Under the pieces are notes generated by a model, which worked only from the letters and a program-made list of their open reading frames with translations, made no database searches and was not told the origin of the DNA. DNA of 28,052 nt from a virus, in IMG/VR virus record IMGVR_UViG_3300020190_000283, positions 1-28,052 of that record. One strand, given 5' to 3'. The position numbers and the translations under genes were made by a program. Below are positions 1 to 20,904 of the stretch, piece by piece. Each line of letters opens with the position of its first letter. Position 1 is the stretch's first letter.

Positions 1-237
1 ATCTTTATCCTTCACCATCCACTCATAGATCTTCTGCCATGCCGGCATATGGTCATCTCGGCATATCTGCCTTAGTGGCTCTCCGTTAGCGAGTCGTTCG
101 CATATCTCTGCGGCGAGCTCCGGGGTGTATTTGGATGGGCGGCCAATCTTAGGTTTCGGCGGGGCTTCTCCCGGGGCCGCAGCCGCCGTGACGGTCATCT
201 CTGCCGTTGGCTTGGTCTTCTTACGTGTTTCAGGCAT
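1..237 (-). CDS. Terminase small subunit, partial (C-terminus beyond window edge)
   Basis: The first 79 codons are present, reading off the left edge. After an Ala/Pro-rich lead of about 30 residues comes GRPSKYTPELAAEICERLA, followed by a segment ending in the YEWM part of a helix-turn-helix. This is the typical start of a phage terminase small subunit, which recognises the packaging site and delivers it to the large subunit. The start is the ATG at 237-235, with GGAATAAGGG just upstream. The large subunit should follow to the left of the window. Family assignment is from recognised motifs only; a DNA-binding regulator of the same fold is a less likely alternative. Confidence 0.8.
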   Translation of the reverse strand, partial: MPETRKKTKPTAEMTVTAAAAPGEAPPKPKIGRPSKYTPELAAEICERLANGEPLRQICRDDHMPAWQKIYEWMVKDKD

Positions 238-276
238 TACCCTTATTCCTACGTGTTTGGTTGATGCGGCGAATTC

Positions 277-306
277 TAACCGGCGGTTAGCCAGCGGTCT
301 AGGGCG
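277..306. repeat. Degenerate iteron-like elements
   Basis: A perfect inverted repeat TAACCG-G-CGGTTA lies at 277-289. Its right arm starts a GGTTAGCCAGC unit (GGTT at 285), and a further weak unit, GGTCTAGGGC, begins exactly 11 bases later at 296. Core and spacing match the better array at 550-593, so this looks like a decayed or auxiliary copy. It is short enough to be chance. Confidence 0.35.
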
Positions 307-534: not shown

Positions 535-549
535 TCTTTGTTCAACCGA

Positions 550-593
550 CGGTTAACCTGCGGTTGACCTGCGGTTAGCCATCGGTTCACCAC
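550..593. repeat. Iteron array 1: four 11-bp tandem repeats
   Basis: Four head-to-tail 11-base units: CGGTTAACCTG (550-560), CGGTTGACCTG (561-571), CGGTTAGCCAT (572-582), CGGTTCACCAC (583-593). GGTT falls at 551, 562, 573 and 584, exactly one helical turn apart. An inverted half-site, AACCG-A-CGGTT, lies at 544-554. The first unit is identical to one on the opposite strand of the array inside the DUF1376 gene. Tandem helically phased sites of this kind usually bind an initiator or regulator cooperatively; that role here is inferred. Confidence 0.75.
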
Positions 594-602
594 TGCCCAA
601 AA

Positions 603-630
603 CCAGAAAAGGCGCCTTATTGAGCGCCTC
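603..630 (-). terminator. Rho-independent terminator of the 2680-653 operon
   Basis: On the minus strand AGGCGC (629-624) pairs with GCGCCT (615-610) around an 8-base loop, followed by TTTTCTGGTTTT. It lies 23 bases past the stop of the last gene of the minus-strand operon, where a terminator is expected, and would insulate the terminase gene from early transcription. Confidence 0.75.
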
Positions 631-652
631 TCTATCCTGCATTTTACTCCTC

Positions 653-6531: not shown

Positions 6532-6767
6532 TTCCAGCCTTCGCCTCGATTACCTTTATGCCACTGGCTAAGTACGTCTCGTTCCAAAATAGATCTGGGG
6601 TGCTTTTCGTTCCAGCCTTTGAGCCACTTGACCGCCTTATCCCGATCATGAAGCCGCATACGGATAACCCAAGCCACCAGATGTCGGTGCCTGCTTTGGT
6701 CCTCGCCCTCGCCTTCCTTCCAGGCTCTAAGTTTTTCCCATACCGCATCAGAAGTCTCCCTTGTCAT
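6528..6767 (-). CDS. Hypothetical protein, 79 aa (DUF7696-like)
   Basis: A soluble basic protein: RHRHLVAWVIRMRLHDRDKA, then WLKGWNEKHP and LERDVLSQWHKGNRG. The layout resembles the phage family DUF7696 as I remember it, unknown in function. The ATG at 6767, which overlaps the helicase gene by 20 bases, gives MTRETSD; the competing frame starting at 6748 yields a low-complexity protein and is judged a shadow. The stop overlaps the RusA ATG as ATGA. Confidence 0.65.
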   Translation of the reverse strand: MTRETSDAVWEKLRAWKEGEGEDQSRHRHLVAWVIRMRLHDRDKAVKWLKGWNEKHPRSILERDVLSQWHKGNRGEGWK

Positions 6768-7698
6768 CGAACACCATCGGCCTGCTGTCAAATTGATCAA
6801 TGAACTGGTGGCTGTCTTTGTGAAACCACAATGAATACCAGTCCTCGTTTTCTCCGTTTCGCTGTTTCTCGCACATCAACATCGCATCTGGTGTCGCATC
6901 GTCTACGCTATTGCCCGCATGGCTTGCGTGCTCTTTCTTTTTATTTCGCCAAACGAGTAACACGTTATCAACCTGATCTGCAATAGACCCGGTGCCCTTT
7001 AAATCGTTCTTATTCGGTGTCACCTCTTCACTCGTAAGTTTTCGAATGTGATGCACCAGGTGAATATGGATGTTGTGATCCCGGGCCAGAGCGGTTAGCT
7101 CATCCACAAAATATTTCTGCGCGTTGTAATCGTCTTCACTCGGCACGCACTTCATGAGCGAGTCAATAAAAATATGAGTGATTTGCAGCTTGACTGCGCA
7201 GTACCTAGCCATTGCAATGACCTGATTTGCATTGGTCGTTCCCTGCTGGTCGTAAAACCAAAGGTGACTTGCCGAGAAGTCTTTAAAGCGCATGACTAAA
7301 TCGGTGATGTACTTTGCTTTGTCCTGGTACCGCGGCCGATCAATGTTCTCGCCGGAAAACTGGCGGATCATCCGGTAGATTGATCGCTTGGGCTTCATCT
7401 CAAACGAAGCTATGCAGACCCGTTGCTTTTGCTTAATTAAGCCCATCGCAATCTGGCCGGTGATCAAAGACTTCCCGCCACCGTTTGAGCCGGCATAGAC
7501 CGTGACCTCACCCGGACGGTAGTGAAACGACGCCTGGGTCTTGATCCAGGGCATGCAGATCAGGTTTTCCTGCGGCGGGTGGATGGCGTCTTGCTTAATA
7601 TCCTCCAGCCAGACCCCGGCCTCGCGGATCTTTTGCTGGGGTTCCGTCGCATGTAGGTAGGCAGCAAAATCGATGTTGTCAGGCTGCAGGATATTCAA
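6748..7698 (-). CDS. DnaB-like replicative helicase (RecA-fold ATPase)
   Basis: 316 aa with a RecA-type core: Walker A GSNGGGKS (70-77), SFEMKP (98-103), Walker B THIFIDS (174-180), HLVHHIRK (213-220) and KGTGSIADQVDN (234-245), the last like the H4/arginine-finger region of DnaB and T7 gp4 helicases. It lacks a primase domain and the long DnaB N-terminal domain, so a primase or host DnaG must help. It should unwind the fork after loading by the DUF1376 initiator candidate upstream. The start is a TTG with GGGAG 6 bases before it; no nearby ATG fits. Confidence 0.88.
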   Translation of the reverse strand: MNILQPDNIDFAAYLHATEPQQKIREAGVWLEDIKQDAIHPPQENLICMPWIKTQASFHYRPGEVTVYAGSNGGGKSLITGQIAMGLIKQKQRVCIASFEMKPKRSIYRMIRQFSGENIDRPRYQDKAKYITDLVMRFKDFSASHLWFYDQQGTTNANQVIAMARYCAVKLQITHIFIDSLMKCVPSEDDYNAQKYFVDELTALARDHNIHIHLVHHIRKLTSEEVTPNKNDLKGTGSIADQVDNVLLVWRNKKKEHASHAGNSVDDATPDAMLMCEKQRNGENEDWYSLWFHKDSHQFIDQFDSRPMVFDDKGDF

Positions 7699-8026
7699 TC
7701 TTCGCTCCCAAGTTAAACAGCAAATTGCCCTCGATCATGGTCGACACAGACTTGGCGCCTACCTCCGTAAATGCCCGGTGAACTTTCAGGATTCGGTCCC
7801 TAGAATCGTCTCCGTCGATGTGAACCTGCAGCCCATAGGCAAACCTAAGGTCCAAAAATTCGATCCGATCAGAGGGCAAAATGGCCACTTCCGGGTGAGA
7901 ACGAAACTCTGGAATTTCGGGCCATAGAGCCGACATCTCAGTCGGGTGGATACCTACCCATACCCAGACCGCTTTGGGGGCCTTACCGGCCATTCTCATG
8001 CGTTTTAGAGGCATATCTCCGATCAC
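7679..8026 (-). CDS. Hypothetical protein, 115 aa, between initiator and helicase
   Basis: Function not recognised. After a basic start (MPLKRMRMAGKAPK) it has WVWVGIHPTEMSALWPEIPEF, ILPSDRIEFLDLRFAYGLQVHIDGDD and FTEVGAKSVSTMIEGNLLFNLG, a mixed alpha/beta protein. Its place between the initiator candidate and the helicase suggests a loader or replication accessory role, by position only. The GTG at 8026 is chosen: AAGGAG lies just upstream and it overlaps the DUF1376 stop as GTGA. A longer reading (from 8092) is possible but lacks support. Confidence 0.65.
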   Translation of the reverse strand: MIGDMPLKRMRMAGKAPKAVWVWVGIHPTEMSALWPEIPEFRSHPEVAILPSDRIEFLDLRFAYGLQVHIDGDDSRDRILKVHRAFTEVGAKSVSTMIEGNLLFNLGAKIEYPAA

Positions 8027-8748
8027 AGAACTCTCCTTCCTGCAAAAACTCCTGGGGTTGAGCTGTCCCCTTCGGGGTTGCCGTCCAGCCACCGGGACTG
8101 CCCAAGGTAGGTTTTTGGGGACGGTTCAAACCCCTCCCGCCACTGCTGGGTCTGTTTCATCGCCCGGATGTGGCCGAGGATCTCGGCGGCCAGGGCATCG
8201 AGCTTGCGGTCAGCCCAAATTTTCTGGCAGGCAGCCCTGGCGACCTTGCGCTTGCTTGCCGGCCAGACGGTCCAAAAATTTTCGAACGCGGTCGACGCAG
8301 TCGACGAAGGGTGTTGCTTTTGTTTTTCTGGTTCTGTTTCTGTATCTGTTTGGTTGCCCGCAGGTTCACCGGAGGTTGACCGCAGGTTAACCGCTGGTTC
8401 AGAGCCTTGACTGGTGCGCTTCTTAGCCGCACGAGCTTGTCTTGCCTTAACGCTCTTTTTGGCAATTTCGGTGTTATGTTTGACAAATTTTGCGTACTTC
8501 GAAATCTCTTCTTCGCACCGTTGGTTCAACCATCCGTCAACCGTCGGTTGAAAGAACTCTTTGAGCACTGGTTCGACCACATCCAGGTCCATCCGAACCT
8601 TCTTACAAACGACCGTTAGATCGTTTGGAATGGGCTTTTCGGTCATCATGTAGAGGTCGATCAGACGCCGGTAGGCTAGGTCCTCGGCGTCGTCCAGGTG
8701 CAGGGTATGCGTGATGTAGTCCCCGACGTGGAATTTGTACCAAATCAT
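8023..8748 (-). CDS. DUF1376 replication protein, candidate origin-binding initiator
   Basis: 241 aa. Residues 1-90 are a DUF1376 domain (WYKFHVGDYITHT, DDAEDLAYRRLIDLYMMTE, PTVDGWLNQRCEEEI), a winged-helix domain found in phage replication proteins. A basic stretch (KKSVKARQARAAKKR) and a polar linker of about 45 residues follow. The C-terminal part (FENFWTVWPASKRKVARAACQKIWA, then FEPSPKTYLGQSRW) resembles the C-terminus of phage O-type replication proteins. The linker DNA holds five 11-bp tandem repeats (8350-8404), as the lambda O gene contains its own origin. ATG overlaps the Cro-like gene stop as ATGA. Confidence 0.85.
   Translation of the reverse strand: MIWYKFHVGDYITHTLHLDDAEDLAYRRLIDLYMMTEKPIPNDLTVVCKKVRMDLDVVEPVLKEFFQPTVDGWLNQRCEEEISKYAKFVKHNTEIAKKSVKARQARAAKKRTSQGSEPAVNLRSTSGEPAGNQTDTETEPEKQKQHPSSTASTAFENFWTVWPASKRKVARAACQKIWADRKLDALAAEILGHIRAMKQTQQWREGFEPSPKTYLGQSRWLDGNPEGDSSTPGVFAGRRVL
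8350..8404. repeat. Iteron array 2 inside the DUF1376 gene (candidate origin)
   Basis: Five 11-base units with GGTT at 8352, 8363, 8374, 8385 and 8396. Read on the minus strand they include CGGTTAACCTG (8393-8383), CGGTCAACCTC (8382-8372), CGGTGAACCTG (8371-8361) and weaker CGGGCAACCAA (8360-8350). The period is not a multiple of three, so the encoded peptide is not repeated: the pattern is kept at DNA level. One unit equals the first unit of the array at 550-593. A further site TCAACC-GTC-GGTTGA lies at 8537-8551. Confidence 0.8.
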
Positions 8749-15532: not shown

Positions 15533-18500
15533 TTACCGCTTAGATTTTAAGTAGTCAAGCGGAGATTTCAAGGCAGGGGGTGGTAAATCCTTGCTTTTTG
15601 TTGATCGGGCCCGCTCCCGTATGGCGTGCATCATCTCGTAGAGCTTATCGGTGCCAGCCTTGGATGATCCGTTTCCCAGGGCAGAAACCACGTCTGCAGG
15701 GAACACGAACTCGCCATCAGCCAGCATGGCAGGAATATCGTCAGACTGCCCGTCGCCGTCGCCCGCCACGTGCTTGCCGTCCCGAAAGTCTTCTCGGCCT
15801 TCAGTCATGGCCGGCAACCCACCTTTTTTAGCCATCAGAGGCAGCGTCATGCCTCCCTGGGCCATCAGGGGTTCGACATACCCGCCGGCCGCGTAGGGCA
15901 GCCCCTGCATCTGGGTGGTGGCCAGGATGTCATCGATAGAATCTTCCTTGCCATAGGCGTAATAGGCATTCTCTTTTTCCTTTTGGGCTTTGGCTGGGTC
16001 AAAGGTATTGCCAGTCAAAACCCTAGCTAGGGTGCCTAACCCAGACAAGTCCTGGGACTGCGGTGCGACTCCCATGCGCTCCTGTAATACAGACGCAAGA
16101 CGTGGGTCGATGTTTTGCATAATGGCCTCTGCTTCACTTTGTTGTTGTATCTCCCGCAGGCGCTCCAGCGGGTCGATTTTCTTCTCACCGGTTACAAACG
16201 ACTCTAGCATCTGCGGCTCGATGCCCGTGATTTCTCCGGCCATGCCAAGCCCAGCCGGCGTACTTTGAGTTAGACGTCGCCGTTTCTTTTGTTTTTCCTT
16301 CTTCTTCTTTTCTTCTTCTGTCTCTTTTGGTTCTTCAACAGTCTTTACTGGGTCCAGAGTTTTGATTGTCGTGACCGGCTTAGTCTCTTCGCTAATGACT
16401 CGATTGGTATTTAGATCAACCGTTGTGGTGGTCTGAGTGTTGGTGTCAACATTGGTATCAGTCTTGGTCTGAGTATTCGTGTTGTTATCGACCTTAACCT
16501 CAGAGACAACTTGATTATTGGTATTGGTATTGATTGTGGTGGTTGTATTGGTGTTGCTATCCACAACCGTTTGTGTAGTCGTATTGGTATTGGTGTCCGT
16601 AGTCGTTGTCGTTTCGGTATTGGTTTTGGTGTCCGTTTTGACTTCGGTATTGGTGTTTGTGTTGGTGTTGGTGTTTGTCTGGGTTGTAACGCCGGTATTT
16701 TGATCGGTAACCGTAGTGGTATTGACTCCGGTATTCGGATCGGTTGTGGTTTCTGTCCGCGCACCGGTGTTGGTATTTACTGAAGAGGTAGTCGTCGCAC
16801 CCGACTGATCCGTGGTCGTTCCTGTTGTCGTGGTGCCGCCAGGGAATGCGCTTAAACTTGATAAGTCTCCGACAGTCAAAGACTTACCATCGGCGCCAGT
16901 GCCAATATAGACATCAGGCGCGACATAAGCGATGTTACCGGTGCCGGTGACCGATGCACCCATAAAGTCTCCCAGGGTGACCGCGTTGCCAAACTTGTCT
17001 GCCCCTACCGCGACATTTAAGTCCGGGATATTTAGCTGTCCATGAGAGTTAATGTTTGTAAGAATCTGCTCGGCAACAGCGGTGTTAGCCACACTCTCAG
17101 CCTGCTGCTGGTTCATGCCAGAGGCGGTCATGGCCGTAACAATGTCAGCACCAGCCTGTTTAAGATCGACGCCAGGTTGCATGGTGGAGTTAATTGTATT
17201 AATCAGGTTTGTAGCCTGGTCTGGATTTGAGGTTGCCGCTGCGATGACCTCAGTCGTTGCCGGCTTATTCCCTGTCACCTCAACTACAGTTGCCACCGTC
17301 CCCGACACGTTTCCGGCAATCACCGGGTCGAGAACAGCCGACGTCATCACCGCATTCATGTTGACGGTGCCCGTACCAAAGTAGCTACTTAAAGCTGCGG
17401 CGCCACCACCTTCAATACTCTCGGTGCCCATTTCCCTACCGACGGTTTTGCCTACCTGGGTGGCCGATTCTTTGACTCCGGTCTTGGCTGTGCCCTCTAT
17501 AAGTTCACCCGCCCGCTTCAGTATTGGAATCTCAGCCGCCGATCCCAGTACTAAACCCATAGCTCCCTGAGCGGCTGACGATTTCTGCGCTAATCGATGA
17601 GCCTCCTGTTCGGTCTTGCCAGATGCTAGAGCCTGCGCCTTGGTGTCGTTATAGCCAGCACCAGCAGCTTCAATTAAATTTGTTATTGCGTTTATGCCAT
17701 AAGCCATAATTTTTGGTGCTTTGGCTACTAAAGACAATACACCGCCAACAAGACTTGGAATCTCTTCAACGCCCTCACTAACGCTGATAGTTACTATTGC
17801 CAAAGGATTATTTATAAATCCATCTTTTAATGCTCTGCCAATTTCAGCCGGAGTTTCCGCTTTTGTGAATCGATCAATCAATTCTTTTTCGTTGTTTAAT
17901 ACTTTATCTCCAATTTGATACTCAGCTGTTGCTTTTAAATCTTTTGCTATTTTGATGAGCGGAGAGTTTTTATTAATGACTTCGATTGACTGCAGAGCGC
18001 CTGCTGTCCAGTCTGCAATACCACCCACCCCGCGGGTAACTAAACCCACTGTTGTAACAACCGGTTGAATAAGTTGCTTGCTAATCTTGTCATCGACGAT
18101 GACGTATTCACCGCCAAGTCCAGCTGACTTCAGATAAGGATCAAACGTGCCGTAAGTCTGCGCCTGATCGAGCCCAGAAAAATCAATCTTAGACAAGTTA
18201 CTTTTTACTGCTGATTCATCGTATCCAGCGTAGGTTCCCTTGCCACCACCTAAGCCGCGATCGGCTAATTTGATCTGATCAGAAGCTGCCGCCAGCGAGG
18301 CGTTCTCAGCGCGGGTGTCCGTGCTGTACTTATTACCATTCCATTCAAATACCTGACCGGGACCTAAGGCAGTGCGAGCTGTGTTATAGGCATCATTGAA
18401 ATTGGTTGACGAAGCAATCTCTGCGTTGGTGATATTTTTTACCAGATCAACGCTTGACTTGCTAACGGAATAGGTTTGCCCACCAAAGGTAAAGTTATTA

Positions 18501-20656
18501 AATCCGCGATTAGCGGCCAGTGCTGTTGCCTCTTCTAATGTATCTGCCTGAGTATTGGTGATGTTCATAGTGTTGAGCTCAGTGGTGCGCTCGATTGCGT
18601 CATCTAAGCCCTCAAACTCACCCATATCTACCTTGGTAACACCGCTTAAAACATCGGTTTTGACATCACCCGTGTCAGACACTTTAGTTACATCACCACC
18701 TTTAACTTGAGTGATTGATGTAATTGTGTTTGCAGCTTTCAATGCATCCTCTTCTGATGCTCCAGAATTAACTGCCGAAACAAAAATTGCTTCTTTTAGG
18801 TTATCAGCACCAGTTTTATCAATTTCACTTTGCGTGATGGTCTTAACCAGATCACCTACAGTTTTCTCATTACCTAAATTATTGGTTGCGTCGGTTGATA
18901 ATTTGTCGATATTGGTGACTGCTTTAACCATTCCACTAAAATTGCCGGTCTGCGCGGCCGTGATGAGACTGGTCGCCTCGCCAGCCAATCGGACGTCTGG
19001 GCTATCAACAAGTTTGCCAGCGTTAATTAATACACCGCTAATATCGCCTTTAGATGCTGAACTTACAACGTTGATTGCCGTGCCAGCATCTTTTAGGGAT
19101 ATGGTATCGGTCAGCATCGTTGTGCCTGCCGCATTAGAAATGTTTGGGTTTGCCATTAAAGTTACGGCGGCACCCGTAAAATCTCCCTTGGATATCTGAT
19201 TGGTGACATTTAATCCGGTGGCAACATTGCTGTATCCAGCCATGCCAGCTAGAGATGCTAGGGTTCCTAATGTGTCACCGTTGTTGTACGCCATGTAAGC
19301 GTTTGCTGCCATTACAAATGGTTGGGCACCCGGAATAAATTGCGCAATCGAAAGTGCACCACGAATGAGGTCGGCATCGCCCGTGCTTCCGCCGAATGCT
19401 GAAAAGTGCGTCTTGCCCGTAAGGGGATCAATATAAACGTTGTAATTGGTTCGTCCTGGACCTGAAAATGTCTGACCAAAGACAAAATCTAAATCCTGCA
19501 TCCCCGGAGCTGTTTGCGTGAGAACCGTGTCTCCTGCAAACAGTTCTTTGCCGGTGGCTATATTTTTCCCAATGTACTGCCCATACGATTCGTTTGAGGG
19601 ATCAGGAATATGCTCAACCTTAGCAACTTCATCCGGGCGCAAATCGACTATTTGAGGATTCTCAAATTGGTCATAAAACATCCGGGAATAGCCAACAATG
19701 TTTCCGCGACCATCATATTTCGGAAAGACATTGACATCGGATAACACGTCTCGCACTTGGATCTGACTGATATCCGTGATCCCTCGATCCATCAAACTTT
19801 TGGCCATATCCAATACGACCTGCTGGCCAACTGACGGATCGTTGTTCAGGATTGATCTAGCGGTTTCATAATCAAACCCTACGGACGGTTGGTTTTCACC
19901 AAACACGCCACCAGAAAACGATGTGATTTGCGGAACAATCTGACCGGCCAAGTTTAATAACGTAACGCGGTCATACTCTTTGTTACCATACTGGATTGTT
20001 GGTTTTGGACCAGTTGTAGTAATTGTAGTGGTTAACGGACTGGCTACAGTAGACCCGCTCGATCCAGGCAAGAACCCTTGGTAGGTAGGCGTTATATTTG
20101 CTTGGGAAAAATATTGGTTCTGTTGTTCCGGGGTGACCCCAGTCGCCGCCATAATTTCATTTGCAGTAACACCGAAACGAGTGGCAGCATCATTAATCGC
20201 ATTTGGATTGTAAATATTTTGTTGAATAAAAGTTGCAATTTGCTCATTTCGAGTTGGAACAGTTGAGACAGGAGTAAGATTTATTGATGTTGTTGGAAGC
20301 GCAATATTTGCCTTTGCAAAATACTCTCTTTGTGCCTCAGGACTAACTCCAGTTGCTTGTTGAATTTCTGACTCGGTTACCCCAAATTTTGATGCCGCAT
20401 CAGCAATCGCTTGAGGATTATTGATATTGTTTTGAATGAATGTTTGAACCTGCTCTAACCGACTTGGCTGTGGACCACTCGGAGCCGGAGGACCAGAAAT
20501 TTCCATAGAAAGCGGTGCTGTTAAACCAGGGGACGGCGTATTTGCAGCATAATATGCCGCTGCTTGGGCAGCGTTATAAGCCGACAAGGCATCCATGATG
20601 TTTGTATAGCCTGCCGCCTGCAGTCCTGGTAAGGCTTCTTCAAATGACTGTGCCAT
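15533..20656 (-). CDS. Giant virion protein, 1707 aa (putative ejection protein)
   Basis: Two related repeats lie at about residues 66-117 and 136-187 (each with TFIQ.NI.NP.AI.DAA..FGVT..EI..ATGV). A long Ala/Gly/Thr region with recurring GDV, NAG and ITNxD turns follows, then hydrophobic helices near 920-1000 and a GTESIEGGG segment typical of large phage ejection proteins. Residues about 1285-1440 are Thr/Asn repeats, followed by a Lys/Arg/Glu block. The C-terminus has DDIPAMLADGEFVFPADVVSALGNGS, a motif shared with tape-measure and internal proteins. It is most likely ejected into the host with the genome. The ATG at 20656 overlaps the upstream stop as TAATG. Confidence 0.72.
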   Translation of the reverse strand: MAQSFEEALPGLQAAGYTNIMDALSAYNAAQAAAYYAANTPSPGLTAPLSMEISGPPAPSGPQPSRLEQVQTFIQNNINNPQAIADAASKFGVTESEIQQATGVSPEAQREYFAKANIALPTTSINLTPVSTVPTRNEQIATFIQQNIYNPNAINDAATRFGVTANEIMAATGVTPEQQNQYFSQANITPTYQGFLPGSSGSTVASPLTTTITTTGPKPTIQYGNKEYDRVTLLNLAGQIVPQITSFSGGVFGENQPSVGFDYETARSILNNDPSVGQQVVLDMAKSLMDRGITDISQIQVRDVLSDVNVFPKYDGRGNIVGYSRMFYDQFENPQIVDLRPDEVAKVEHIPDPSNESYGQYIGKNIATGKELFAGDTVLTQTAPGMQDLDFVFGQTFSGPGRTNYNVYIDPLTGKTHFSAFGGSTGDADLIRGALSIAQFIPGAQPFVMAANAYMAYNNGDTLGTLASLAGMAGYSNVATGLNVTNQISKGDFTGAAVTLMANPNISNAAGTTMLTDTISLKDAGTAINVVSSASKGDISGVLINAGKLVDSPDVRLAGEATSLITAAQTGNFSGMVKAVTNIDKLSTDATNNLGNEKTVGDLVKTITQSEIDKTGADNLKEAIFVSAVNSGASEEDALKAANTITSITQVKGGDVTKVSDTGDVKTDVLSGVTKVDMGEFEGLDDAIERTTELNTMNITNTQADTLEEATALAANRGFNNFTFGGQTYSVSKSSVDLVKNITNAEIASSTNFNDAYNTARTALGPGQVFEWNGNKYSTDTRAENASLAAASDQIKLADRGLGGGKGTYAGYDESAVKSNLSKIDFSGLDQAQTYGTFDPYLKSAGLGGEYVIVDDKISKQLIQPVVTTVGLVTRGVGGIADWTAGALQSIEVINKNSPLIKIAKDLKATAEYQIGDKVLNNEKELIDRFTKAETPAEIGRALKDGFINNPLAIVTISVSEGVEEIPSLVGGVLSLVAKAPKIMAYGINAITNLIEAAGAGYNDTKAQALASGKTEQEAHRLAQKSSAAQGAMGLVLGSAAEIPILKRAGELIEGTAKTGVKESATQVGKTVGREMGTESIEGGGAAALSSYFGTGTVNMNAVMTSAVLDPVIAGNVSGTVATVVEVTGNKPATTEVIAAATSNPDQATNLINTINSTMQPGVDLKQAGADIVTAMTASGMNQQQAESVANTAVAEQILTNINSHGQLNIPDLNVAVGADKFGNAVTLGDFMGASVTGTGNIAYVAPDVYIGTGADGKSLTVGDLSSLSAFPGGTTTTGTTTDQSGATTTSSVNTNTGARTETTTDPNTGVNTTTVTDQNTGVTTQTNTNTNTNTNTEVKTDTKTNTETTTTTDTNTNTTTQTVVDSNTNTTTTINTNTNNQVVSEVKVDNNTNTQTKTDTNVDTNTQTTTTVDLNTNRVISEETKPVTTIKTLDPVKTVEEPKETEEEKKKKEKQKKRRRLTQSTPAGLGMAGEITGIEPQMLESFVTGEKKIDPLERLREIQQQSEAEAIMQNIDPRLASVLQERMGVAPQSQDLSGLGTLARVLTGNTFDPAKAQKEKENAYYAYGKEDSIDDILATTQMQGLPYAAGGYVEPLMAQGGMTLPLMAKKGGLPAMTEGREDFRDGKHVAGDGDGQSDDIPAMLADGEFVFPADVVSALGNGSSKAGTDKLYEMMHAIRERARSTKSKDLPPPALKSPLDYLKSKR
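16430..16790. repeat. Low-complexity GGTATT/GGTGTT tract
   Basis: About 360 bases are made of imperfect short repeats (ggtatt, ggtgtt, gttgtc on the plus strand) that encode the Thr/Asn-rich segment of the giant protein on the minus strand. Such tracts expand and shrink by slippage and make spurious long open frames on the plus strand here. Confidence 0.8.
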
Positions 20657-20904
20657 TAGTTTGTCCGCGGGTTCACTGCATTGACGACAGCCTCTGCCCA
20701 CTCCTGCCAATCGTCAAAGTTATAAGGTTCGGGTATGGCTTCATTTGCAAATAGGTCAATTGTTTTTAAACCAGCAGCCCATGATTTCCAATCTACTCCC
20801 GGACCAGGAATCTGTAGCTGCTGAGGTGCGTAGAGCTCGCACATAAGCGACGCCCAAGAATCAAATGTATGGTATCGGGGGTCGTAAATCAGCGCGACGG
20901 TCAT
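20656..20904 (-). CDS. Small conserved structural-region protein, 82 aa
   Basis: No function recognised. A soluble, Trp- and Pro-rich protein: YHTFDSWASLMCELYAPQQL, PGVDWKSWAAGLKTIDLFANEAIPEP and FDDWQEWAEAVVNAVN. I associate similar short proteins with the space between tail and internal-protein genes of other aquatic phages. It is coupled at both ends, ATGA with the upstream gene and TAATG with the giant-protein gene, so it may be a chaperone or minor part of that protein's assembly; this is by position only. Confidence 0.65.
   Translation of the reverse strand: MTVALIYDPRYHTFDSWASLMCELYAPQQLQIPGPGVDWKSWAAGLKTIDLFANEAIPEPYNFDDWQEWAEAVVNAVNPRTN

What the first reader, a model, noticed from the sequence alone, without database searches (positions are those of the whole stretch)
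550..593. A second array with the same core and period 8 kb away in non-coding DNA
Four 11-bp units at 550-593 share an identical 11-mer (CGGTTAACCTG) with the in-gene array on the opposite strand. Two matching arrays suggest DNA looping, a second origin or an incompatibility-type copy control by one binding protein, next to the terminase gene. This could couple replication to packaging.
Basis: partly seen in the sequence, partly recalled or inferred. Interest (0 to 1): 0.72.

Follow-up and report, generated by a model that had tools for sequence, protein, structure and literature searches.

The report
Replication-initiator sites at phage terminase gene
In a group of uncultured phages, the DNA repeats that mark the likely replication origin inside the initiator gene recur, in matching form, at the start of the DNA-packaging (terminase) gene 8-10 kb away, and the two sets change together between phages, so one protein (very probably the replication initiator) reads both and could tie packaging to replication.

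Summary
The array is real: TTCAACCGA plus four 11-bp units at 541-593. It and the in-gene array are the only 11-bp-period arrays in the window, and they share a 15-mer. The in-gene array sits in a DUF1376 'primosomal/replication' gene. In 150 non-redundant DUF1376 genes the linker is strongly enriched for 11-bp and 6/7-bp repeats, a lambda-like in-gene origin layout. In the window's Rep clade, the start of the terminase small-subunit gene (terS) carries sites matching each phage's own in-gene core. Cores differ between phages and both loci change together (0 of 20,000 permutations). In sister contigs L302/L306 the Rep DNA-binding domain and all three site groups differ, while the TerS helix-turn-helix is identical: the sites follow Rep, not TerS. 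The window has a further site (278-288) between the -35 and -10 hexamers of a predicted terS promoter. Most likely this is a second Rep-binding cluster gating terS, probably by repression that lifts as replicated origins titrate Rep. An SPP1 oriR-type fork barrier or second origin is the main rival; looping is untested. New variant of a known kind (SPP1 oriL/oriR).

The parts
541..593 (+). Distal terS-side Rep-site array: TTCAACCGA + four 11-bp units (dyad AACCGACGGTT 544-554)
   Evidence: 100% conserved in L017 while flanks diverge
273..305 (-). Proximal site: dyad AACCGGCGGTT (278-288) lying between the -35-like TAGACC (301-296) and -10-like TAGAAT (278-273) of a predicted terS promoter
   Evidence: 27 of 28 bases 278-305 identical in L017; relatives have AAGCGAATCG-NN-TACACT in the same place
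607..632 (-). Rho-independent terminator-like hairpin of the upstream gene (653-997), immediately before the array
1..237 (-). Terminase small subunit gene (Sf6-type), N-terminal 79 codons; cut by the window end
   Evidence: Pfam Sf6_terminase 2.2e-15; PHROG 1482
8023..8748 (-). DUF1376 / 'primosomal protein' replication initiator candidate (Rep)
   Evidence: Pfam DUF1376 3.9e-21; PHROG 9327 primosomal protein; AF2: N-domain 1-113 confident, winged-helix-like; linker disordered; C-domain confident
8350..8393 (-). In-gene 11-bp iteron array CGGTTAACCTG CGGTCAACCTC CGGTGAACCTG CGGGCAACCAA, in the codons of the disordered linker
8326..8349 (-). Period-6 A-rich repeat ACAGATACAGAAACAGAACCAGAA directly after the iterons (position of the AT-rich 6/7-bp tract in other DUF1376 genes)
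8539..8552 (-). Further in-gene site TTCAACCGACGGTT in the DUF1376-domain codons, identical 14-mer to 541-554
6748..7698 (-). DnaB-like replicative helicase gene downstream of Rep
   Evidence: Pfam DnaB_C 3e-19

Best explanation
The array at 541-593, with the proximal dyad at 278-288, is a second cluster of binding sites for the phage's own replication initiator (the DUF1376 protein at 8023-8748), whose primary cluster lies in its own gene as a lambda-like origin. Initiator bound at the terS side most probably gates terS (and the late operon behind it). Early in infection Rep occupies the terS promoter region and holds terminase expression back; as origins multiply they titrate Rep, the promoter is freed and packaging starts. 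Shown: the arrays, their covariation with Rep rather than TerS, the location at terS, and the site inside a promoter-like spacer. Inferred: that Rep binds them (about 0.85 likely), that the effect is on transcription, and that its sign is negative.
For: (1) DUF1376 linkers are enriched for 11-bp iterons (51% of 150 genes with z>3) and 6/7-bp AT-rich repeats (63% at period 7). (2) Own in-gene array against own terS region: 0 of 20,000 random pairings reach the observed mean. In window, L317, L302, L306, L133, L128 and L140 it beats every other 570-bp stretch of the same contig. (3) L302/L306 (94-95% identical over most of their common length): Rep N-domain diverged, C-domain nearly identical, TerS helix-turn-helix identical; site cores switch together from ACCGANTCGGT to ACCAANTTGGT in the DUF1376 codons, the linker and the terS 5' end. 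(4) L128/L140: TerS region 93% identical, Rep N-domain 58%, different cores at both loci. (5) The site-bearing phages fall together in one part of the Rep tree. (6) The proximal site sits in the spacer of a predicted terS promoter, downstream of a terminator, and abuts a TACACT -10 in relatives. (7) In L302/L306/L133 the array lies in terS codons just after the start, which fits a roadblock or operator, not an activator.
Against: No binding or expression data. The promoter call is a consensus match only. L302 and L306 show no covarying site upstream of terS, only within its 5' codons. Single sites also occur elsewhere in 53-55 kb relatives, so the cluster is not the sole extra target there. 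About half of the DUF1376+TerS contigs examined lack a matching terS cluster, so the arrangement is not essential for DUF1376 phages. The fold matches to winged helices are generic (best Z 6.7).
Confidence: 0.5

Rival explanations
1. SPP1 oriR-type site: Rep bound at the terS-side cluster stalls replication forks (or serves as a late origin) and triggers the switch from theta to concatemer-producing replication next to the packaging start.
For: SPP1 has oriL inside initiator gene 38 and oriR in an intergenic region ~13 kb away with similar direct repeats, both bound by gp38, and gp38 at oriR is proposed to stall forks (PMC6316719, PMC3485210). Same spacing scale here (8-10 kb). The terS-side cluster may lie in coding or non-coding DNA, which suits a barrier. 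RusA, RecA-dependent nuclease-like and exonuclease-like genes are present.
Against: No AT-rich 6/7-bp repeat tract seen beside the terS arrays, whereas SPP1 oriR has one; no GC-skew feature at 550; the proximal site sits in a promoter spacer.
Confidence: 0.27
2. Rep activates, rather than represses, the terS/late promoter (initiator as late-gene activator).
For: Promoters have a -10 but poor -35 (TAGACC), with the site just upstream of the -10.
Against: Sites lie in the -35/-10 spacer and, in L302/L306/L133, inside terS codons, poor places for classical activation.
Confidence: 0.1
3. The terS-side array is the pac site recognised by TerS, and the in-gene copy is incidental.
For: pac sites of headful phages lie in or near terS (general knowledge); this array does too.
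Against: Cores change while the TerS helix-turn-helix is 100% (L302/L306) or 93% (L128/L140) identical; the in-gene arrays are a widespread DUF1376 feature independent of this terminase.
Confidence: 0.06
4. Plasmid-style handcuffing/looping between the two clusters that limits copy number.
For: Paired iteron clusters for one protein.
Against: No direct evidence; a phage in its lytic cycle has little need of strict copy control.
Confidence: 0.05
5. Chance or mutational copy of a repeat with no function.
For: About half of the DUF1376+TerS contigs lack it.
Against: Covariation, conservation in L017 and clade-wide position.
Confidence: 0.02

Closest known systems
Bacillus phage SPP1 oriL/oriR with initiator gp38 (PMC6316719, PMC3485210)
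   Same: Initiator-site cluster within the initiator gene plus a matching second cluster in DNA ~10 kb away in the late region; direct repeats; one initiator reads both.
   Different: Different initiator annotation (DUF1376; relation to gp38 not tested); second cluster at the start of terS, in some phages inside its codons; no adjacent AT-rich tract seen; a site in a promoter spacer; natural covariation of cores.
Phage lambda ori inside gene O (general knowledge)
   Same: Iterons followed by AT-rich DNA in the codons of the linker between N- and C-domains of the initiator.
   Different: 11-bp rather than ~18-20-bp units; lambda is not known to have a second O-site cluster at its terminase genes.
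Iteron plasmids (general knowledge; review PMC4980987 seen by title and abstract start only)
   Same: Directly repeated initiator sites; initiators that also act as transcriptional repressors of their own operon.
   Different: Here the second target is the packaging gene of a phage 8 kb away.

Membership tests
Lambda-type in-gene replication origin (iterons + AT-rich tract in the initiator gene) | Tandem iterons inside the initiator gene, DNA-level (11-bp period runs through all three frames) | tested here: met
Lambda-type in-gene replication origin (iterons + AT-rich tract in the initiator gene) | AT-rich tract next to the iterons | tested here: met
   6/7-bp repeats directly after the iterons in the family; in the window a short A-rich period-6 run, 8326-8349
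Lambda-type in-gene replication origin (iterons + AT-rich tract in the initiator gene) | Initiator binds iterons and replication starts there | not testable with these tools
   needs biochemistry
SPP1-type dual initiator clusters (oriL/oriR) | Second cluster with the same repeats, ~10 kb from the in-gene one, in the late region | tested here: met
   SPP1 features from PMC6316719
SPP1-type dual initiator clusters (oriL/oriR) | AT-rich unwinding element beside the second cluster | tested here: inconclusive
   no 6/7-bp AT-rich repeats seen by inspection beside the window array or the relatives' terS arrays; no dedicated search for an unwinding element was run
SPP1-type dual initiator clusters (oriL/oriR) | Initiator homologous to gp38 | not tested
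   no comparison with gp38 was run
pac site read by TerS | Site specificity follows TerS | tested here: not met

The most novel reading that the evidence does not exclude
The replication initiator of this phage clade doubles as the repressor/timer of the terminase operon: multiplying origins titrate it, so packaging starts only when enough genomes exist. The operator and the origin coevolve with the initiator's DNA-binding domain.
Probability: 0.35. Interest if true: 0.8.

Novelty: new variant of a known kind. Interest (0 to 1): 0.64.

Why it matters
How phages time the change from genome copying to packaging is poorly understood outside a few models. Here natural phage pairs (L302/L306, L128/L140) provide a ready genetic test: swap the initiator domain or the sites and ask whether packaging-gene expression or concatemer formation follows. 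The survey also indicates that the DUF1376 family, still 'unknown function' in Pfam, often carries an iteron-plus-AT-repeat origin in its own gene.

Tried and rejected
No similar 200-700 region in the phage collection. GC skew in the window: no turn at either array. RNA fold of 306-530: no better than shuffles (z -0.03); no Rfam family in the window, L114, L294 or L302. PDB sequence search with the Rep profile: nothing up to E=1; Foldseek: no hits at E<=0.001. An own-core second-array scan over 39 DUF1376 loci found only the window and L169 as outliers; it does not cover the nearest relatives, whose units vary between 11 and 12 bp, so a local alignment against the terS region was used instead. 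A longest-shared-word test misses L140, whose units differ internally. A regex for half-site + -10 promoters elsewhere in the relatives gave essentially only terS, plus one hit at L129 498 with no gene start within 150 bp. A TerS/pac reading was considered and rejected on covariation. Paper searches for DUF1376, YdaU and initiator/late-promoter combinations gave no paper whose title or abstract start describes these sites.

Full report
CHECK. Only two 11-bp-period segments stand out in the 28 kb, the reported one (544-587) and the in-gene one (8352-8399), with scores 15.5 and 19.5 against at most 10.5 in 60 dinucleotide shuffles; they share the 15-mer CGGTTAACCTGCGGT. The exact dyad AACCGNCGGTT occurs three times only: 278-288, 544-554 and 8539-8549. 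The first two flank the region upstream of the terminase small-subunit gene (terS, start codon at 237 on the - strand; Pfam Sf6_terminase); the third is in the DUF1376 codons of the replication gene 8023-8748. The same array is carried by L006/L018, L015, L016/L020, L019/L021 and L017. In L017, 541-618 is a 78-bp run of identity, the longest in the aligned 1.5 kb, although the adjoining 306-480 is only 33% identical.

SETTING. In the direction of transcription (- strand) the order is: gene 653-997; a rho-independent terminator-like hairpin 632-607; the array 593-541; ~235 bp; a predicted promoter TAGACC-17-TAGAAT (301-273) whose spacer holds the 278-288 dyad; terS. Array and dyad therefore lie in the stretch expected to contain the terS promoter.

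WHAT THE IN-GENE ARRAY IS. Across 150 non-redundant DUF1376 genes from viral and bacterial contigs, the linker after the DUF1376 domain is strongly enriched for 11-bp periodicity (51% with z>3 against codon shuffles) and for 7-bp (63%) or 6-bp (23%) periodicity. In 49 genes that passed a threshold for a clear array, 11-bp units of many different cores are typically followed by AT-rich AACCAATA-like repeats (one of the 49, L195, is a masked run of N and is not evidence). The window has this layout: 11-bp units 8393-8350, then period-6 repeats 8349-8326. AlphaFold2 gives confident N- and C-domains with a disordered linker encoded by just this DNA; the N-domain resembles winged helices generically (Z up to 6.7). 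By established analogy with lambda O (general knowledge), this is a replication origin inside the initiator gene.

THE SECOND ARRAY FOLLOWS THE INITIATOR. Of 34 contigs with both DUF1376 and TerS, the own linker matches the own terS region better than expected: mean 14.7 against 12.3 for random pairings, 0 of 20,000 permutations. In the window, L317, L302, L306, L133, L128 and L140 the terS region beats every other stretch of the same contig. The cores differ: GGTTAACC (window), GAGGTACCC (L140), ACCGATTCGGT (L302), ACCAATTTGGT (L306), AACCCAAACGG (L133), AACCGAGTCGGTT/AAGCGAATCG (L117, L122, L128, L129). L302 and L306 are 94-95% identical over most of their common length; the Rep N-domain has diverged (74% over 112 aa) while the C-domain is nearly identical, TerS is identical beyond its first ~27 residues save one residue, and the core switches in all three places: DUF1376 codons, linker, terS 5' end. 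In L302 (11 kb) the core with up to one mismatch occurs at just those three places. L128 and L140 have 93% identical TerS helix-turn-helix regions but 58% identical Rep N-domains and different cores. So the specificity lies with Rep, not TerS. On a Rep tree the site-bearing phages cluster (2 changes of label against 9.7 in shuffles; the unlabelled row among them, L110, was not in the scored set). L110 itself has Rep-gene sites, a site ~680 bp upstream of terS and a weaker AAACCGAAAGGGTTTACACT at the promoter position.

HOW IT PROBABLY WORKS. Established: matched, coevolving sites at the initiator gene and at terS. Inferred: Rep binds both. For the consequence there are two serious candidates. 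(a) Control of terS transcription: the proximal site lies in the promoter spacer in the window and directly before the -10 (TACACT) in L122, L128 and L129; in L302, L306 and L133 the array is inside the first terS codons. These places favour repression or roadblock; release by titration as origins multiply would delay packaging until genomes accumulate. (b) An SPP1 oriR-like fork barrier or late origin: SPP1 has the same two-cluster arrangement, and gp38 at oriR is proposed to stall forks and switch replication to concatemers (PMC6316719, PMC3485210). Against a second origin: no AT-rich repeat tract was seen at the terS arrays and no skew signal was found. I put (a) ahead, without excluding (b).

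LIMITS. No binding data; 'Rep binds' rests on covariation and analogy. Many DUF1376 phages lack the terS cluster. In three 53-55 kb relatives further single sites occur, including AAGCGAATCGGTTATG overlapping a start codon after a terminator-like hairpin in two of them, so Rep may have a small set of targets. The window is a virus record of 28,052 bp, probably incomplete, and terS is cut at its edge. The relatives' cores were read partly by eye from the printed sequences; the statistical weight rests.

Noticed in passing
L273 reverse strand, ~220-740 of the reverse complement (three copies); also upstream of terS in L114 and L294: Recurrent stem CAACACGCATGGGGATTG ... CAGTCCCCAG(T/C)CGTGTTGG with variable loops upstream of terS, tandem in L110's phage; no Rfam family matched in window, L114, L294 or L302. 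Possible structured RNA.
   Followed up: partly
L169:9943-9976: A DUF1376 phage with a second array of its own core ~58 bp upstream of its rep gene rather than near terS; possible autoregulatory operator.
   Followed up: no
L116:18394-18427, L129:12005-12053: Further arrays of the own core upstream of a small ORF (MxYxAxIExRVAGIPC...), 8-9 kb downstream of rep.
   Followed up: partly
L358:13869 (G008), L361:9617 (G011): Single site AAGCGAATCGGTTATG overlapping a start codon just after a GCCCCTTCGGGGGC hairpin in two relatives.
   Followed up: no
DUF1376 genes, e.g. L169, L138, L155, L248: Widespread in-gene layout of 11-bp iterons then AT-rich 6/7-bp repeats in a Pfam 'unknown function' family.
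   Followed up: yes
L302:819-1600 vs L306:1024-1800: Rep genes mosaic: N-domain and linker diverged, C-domain nearly identical; looks like a domain exchange.
   Followed up: partly
window 16500-16680: Low-complexity TNTNTN-coding stretch in the 1725-aa protein 15533-20710.
   Followed up: no
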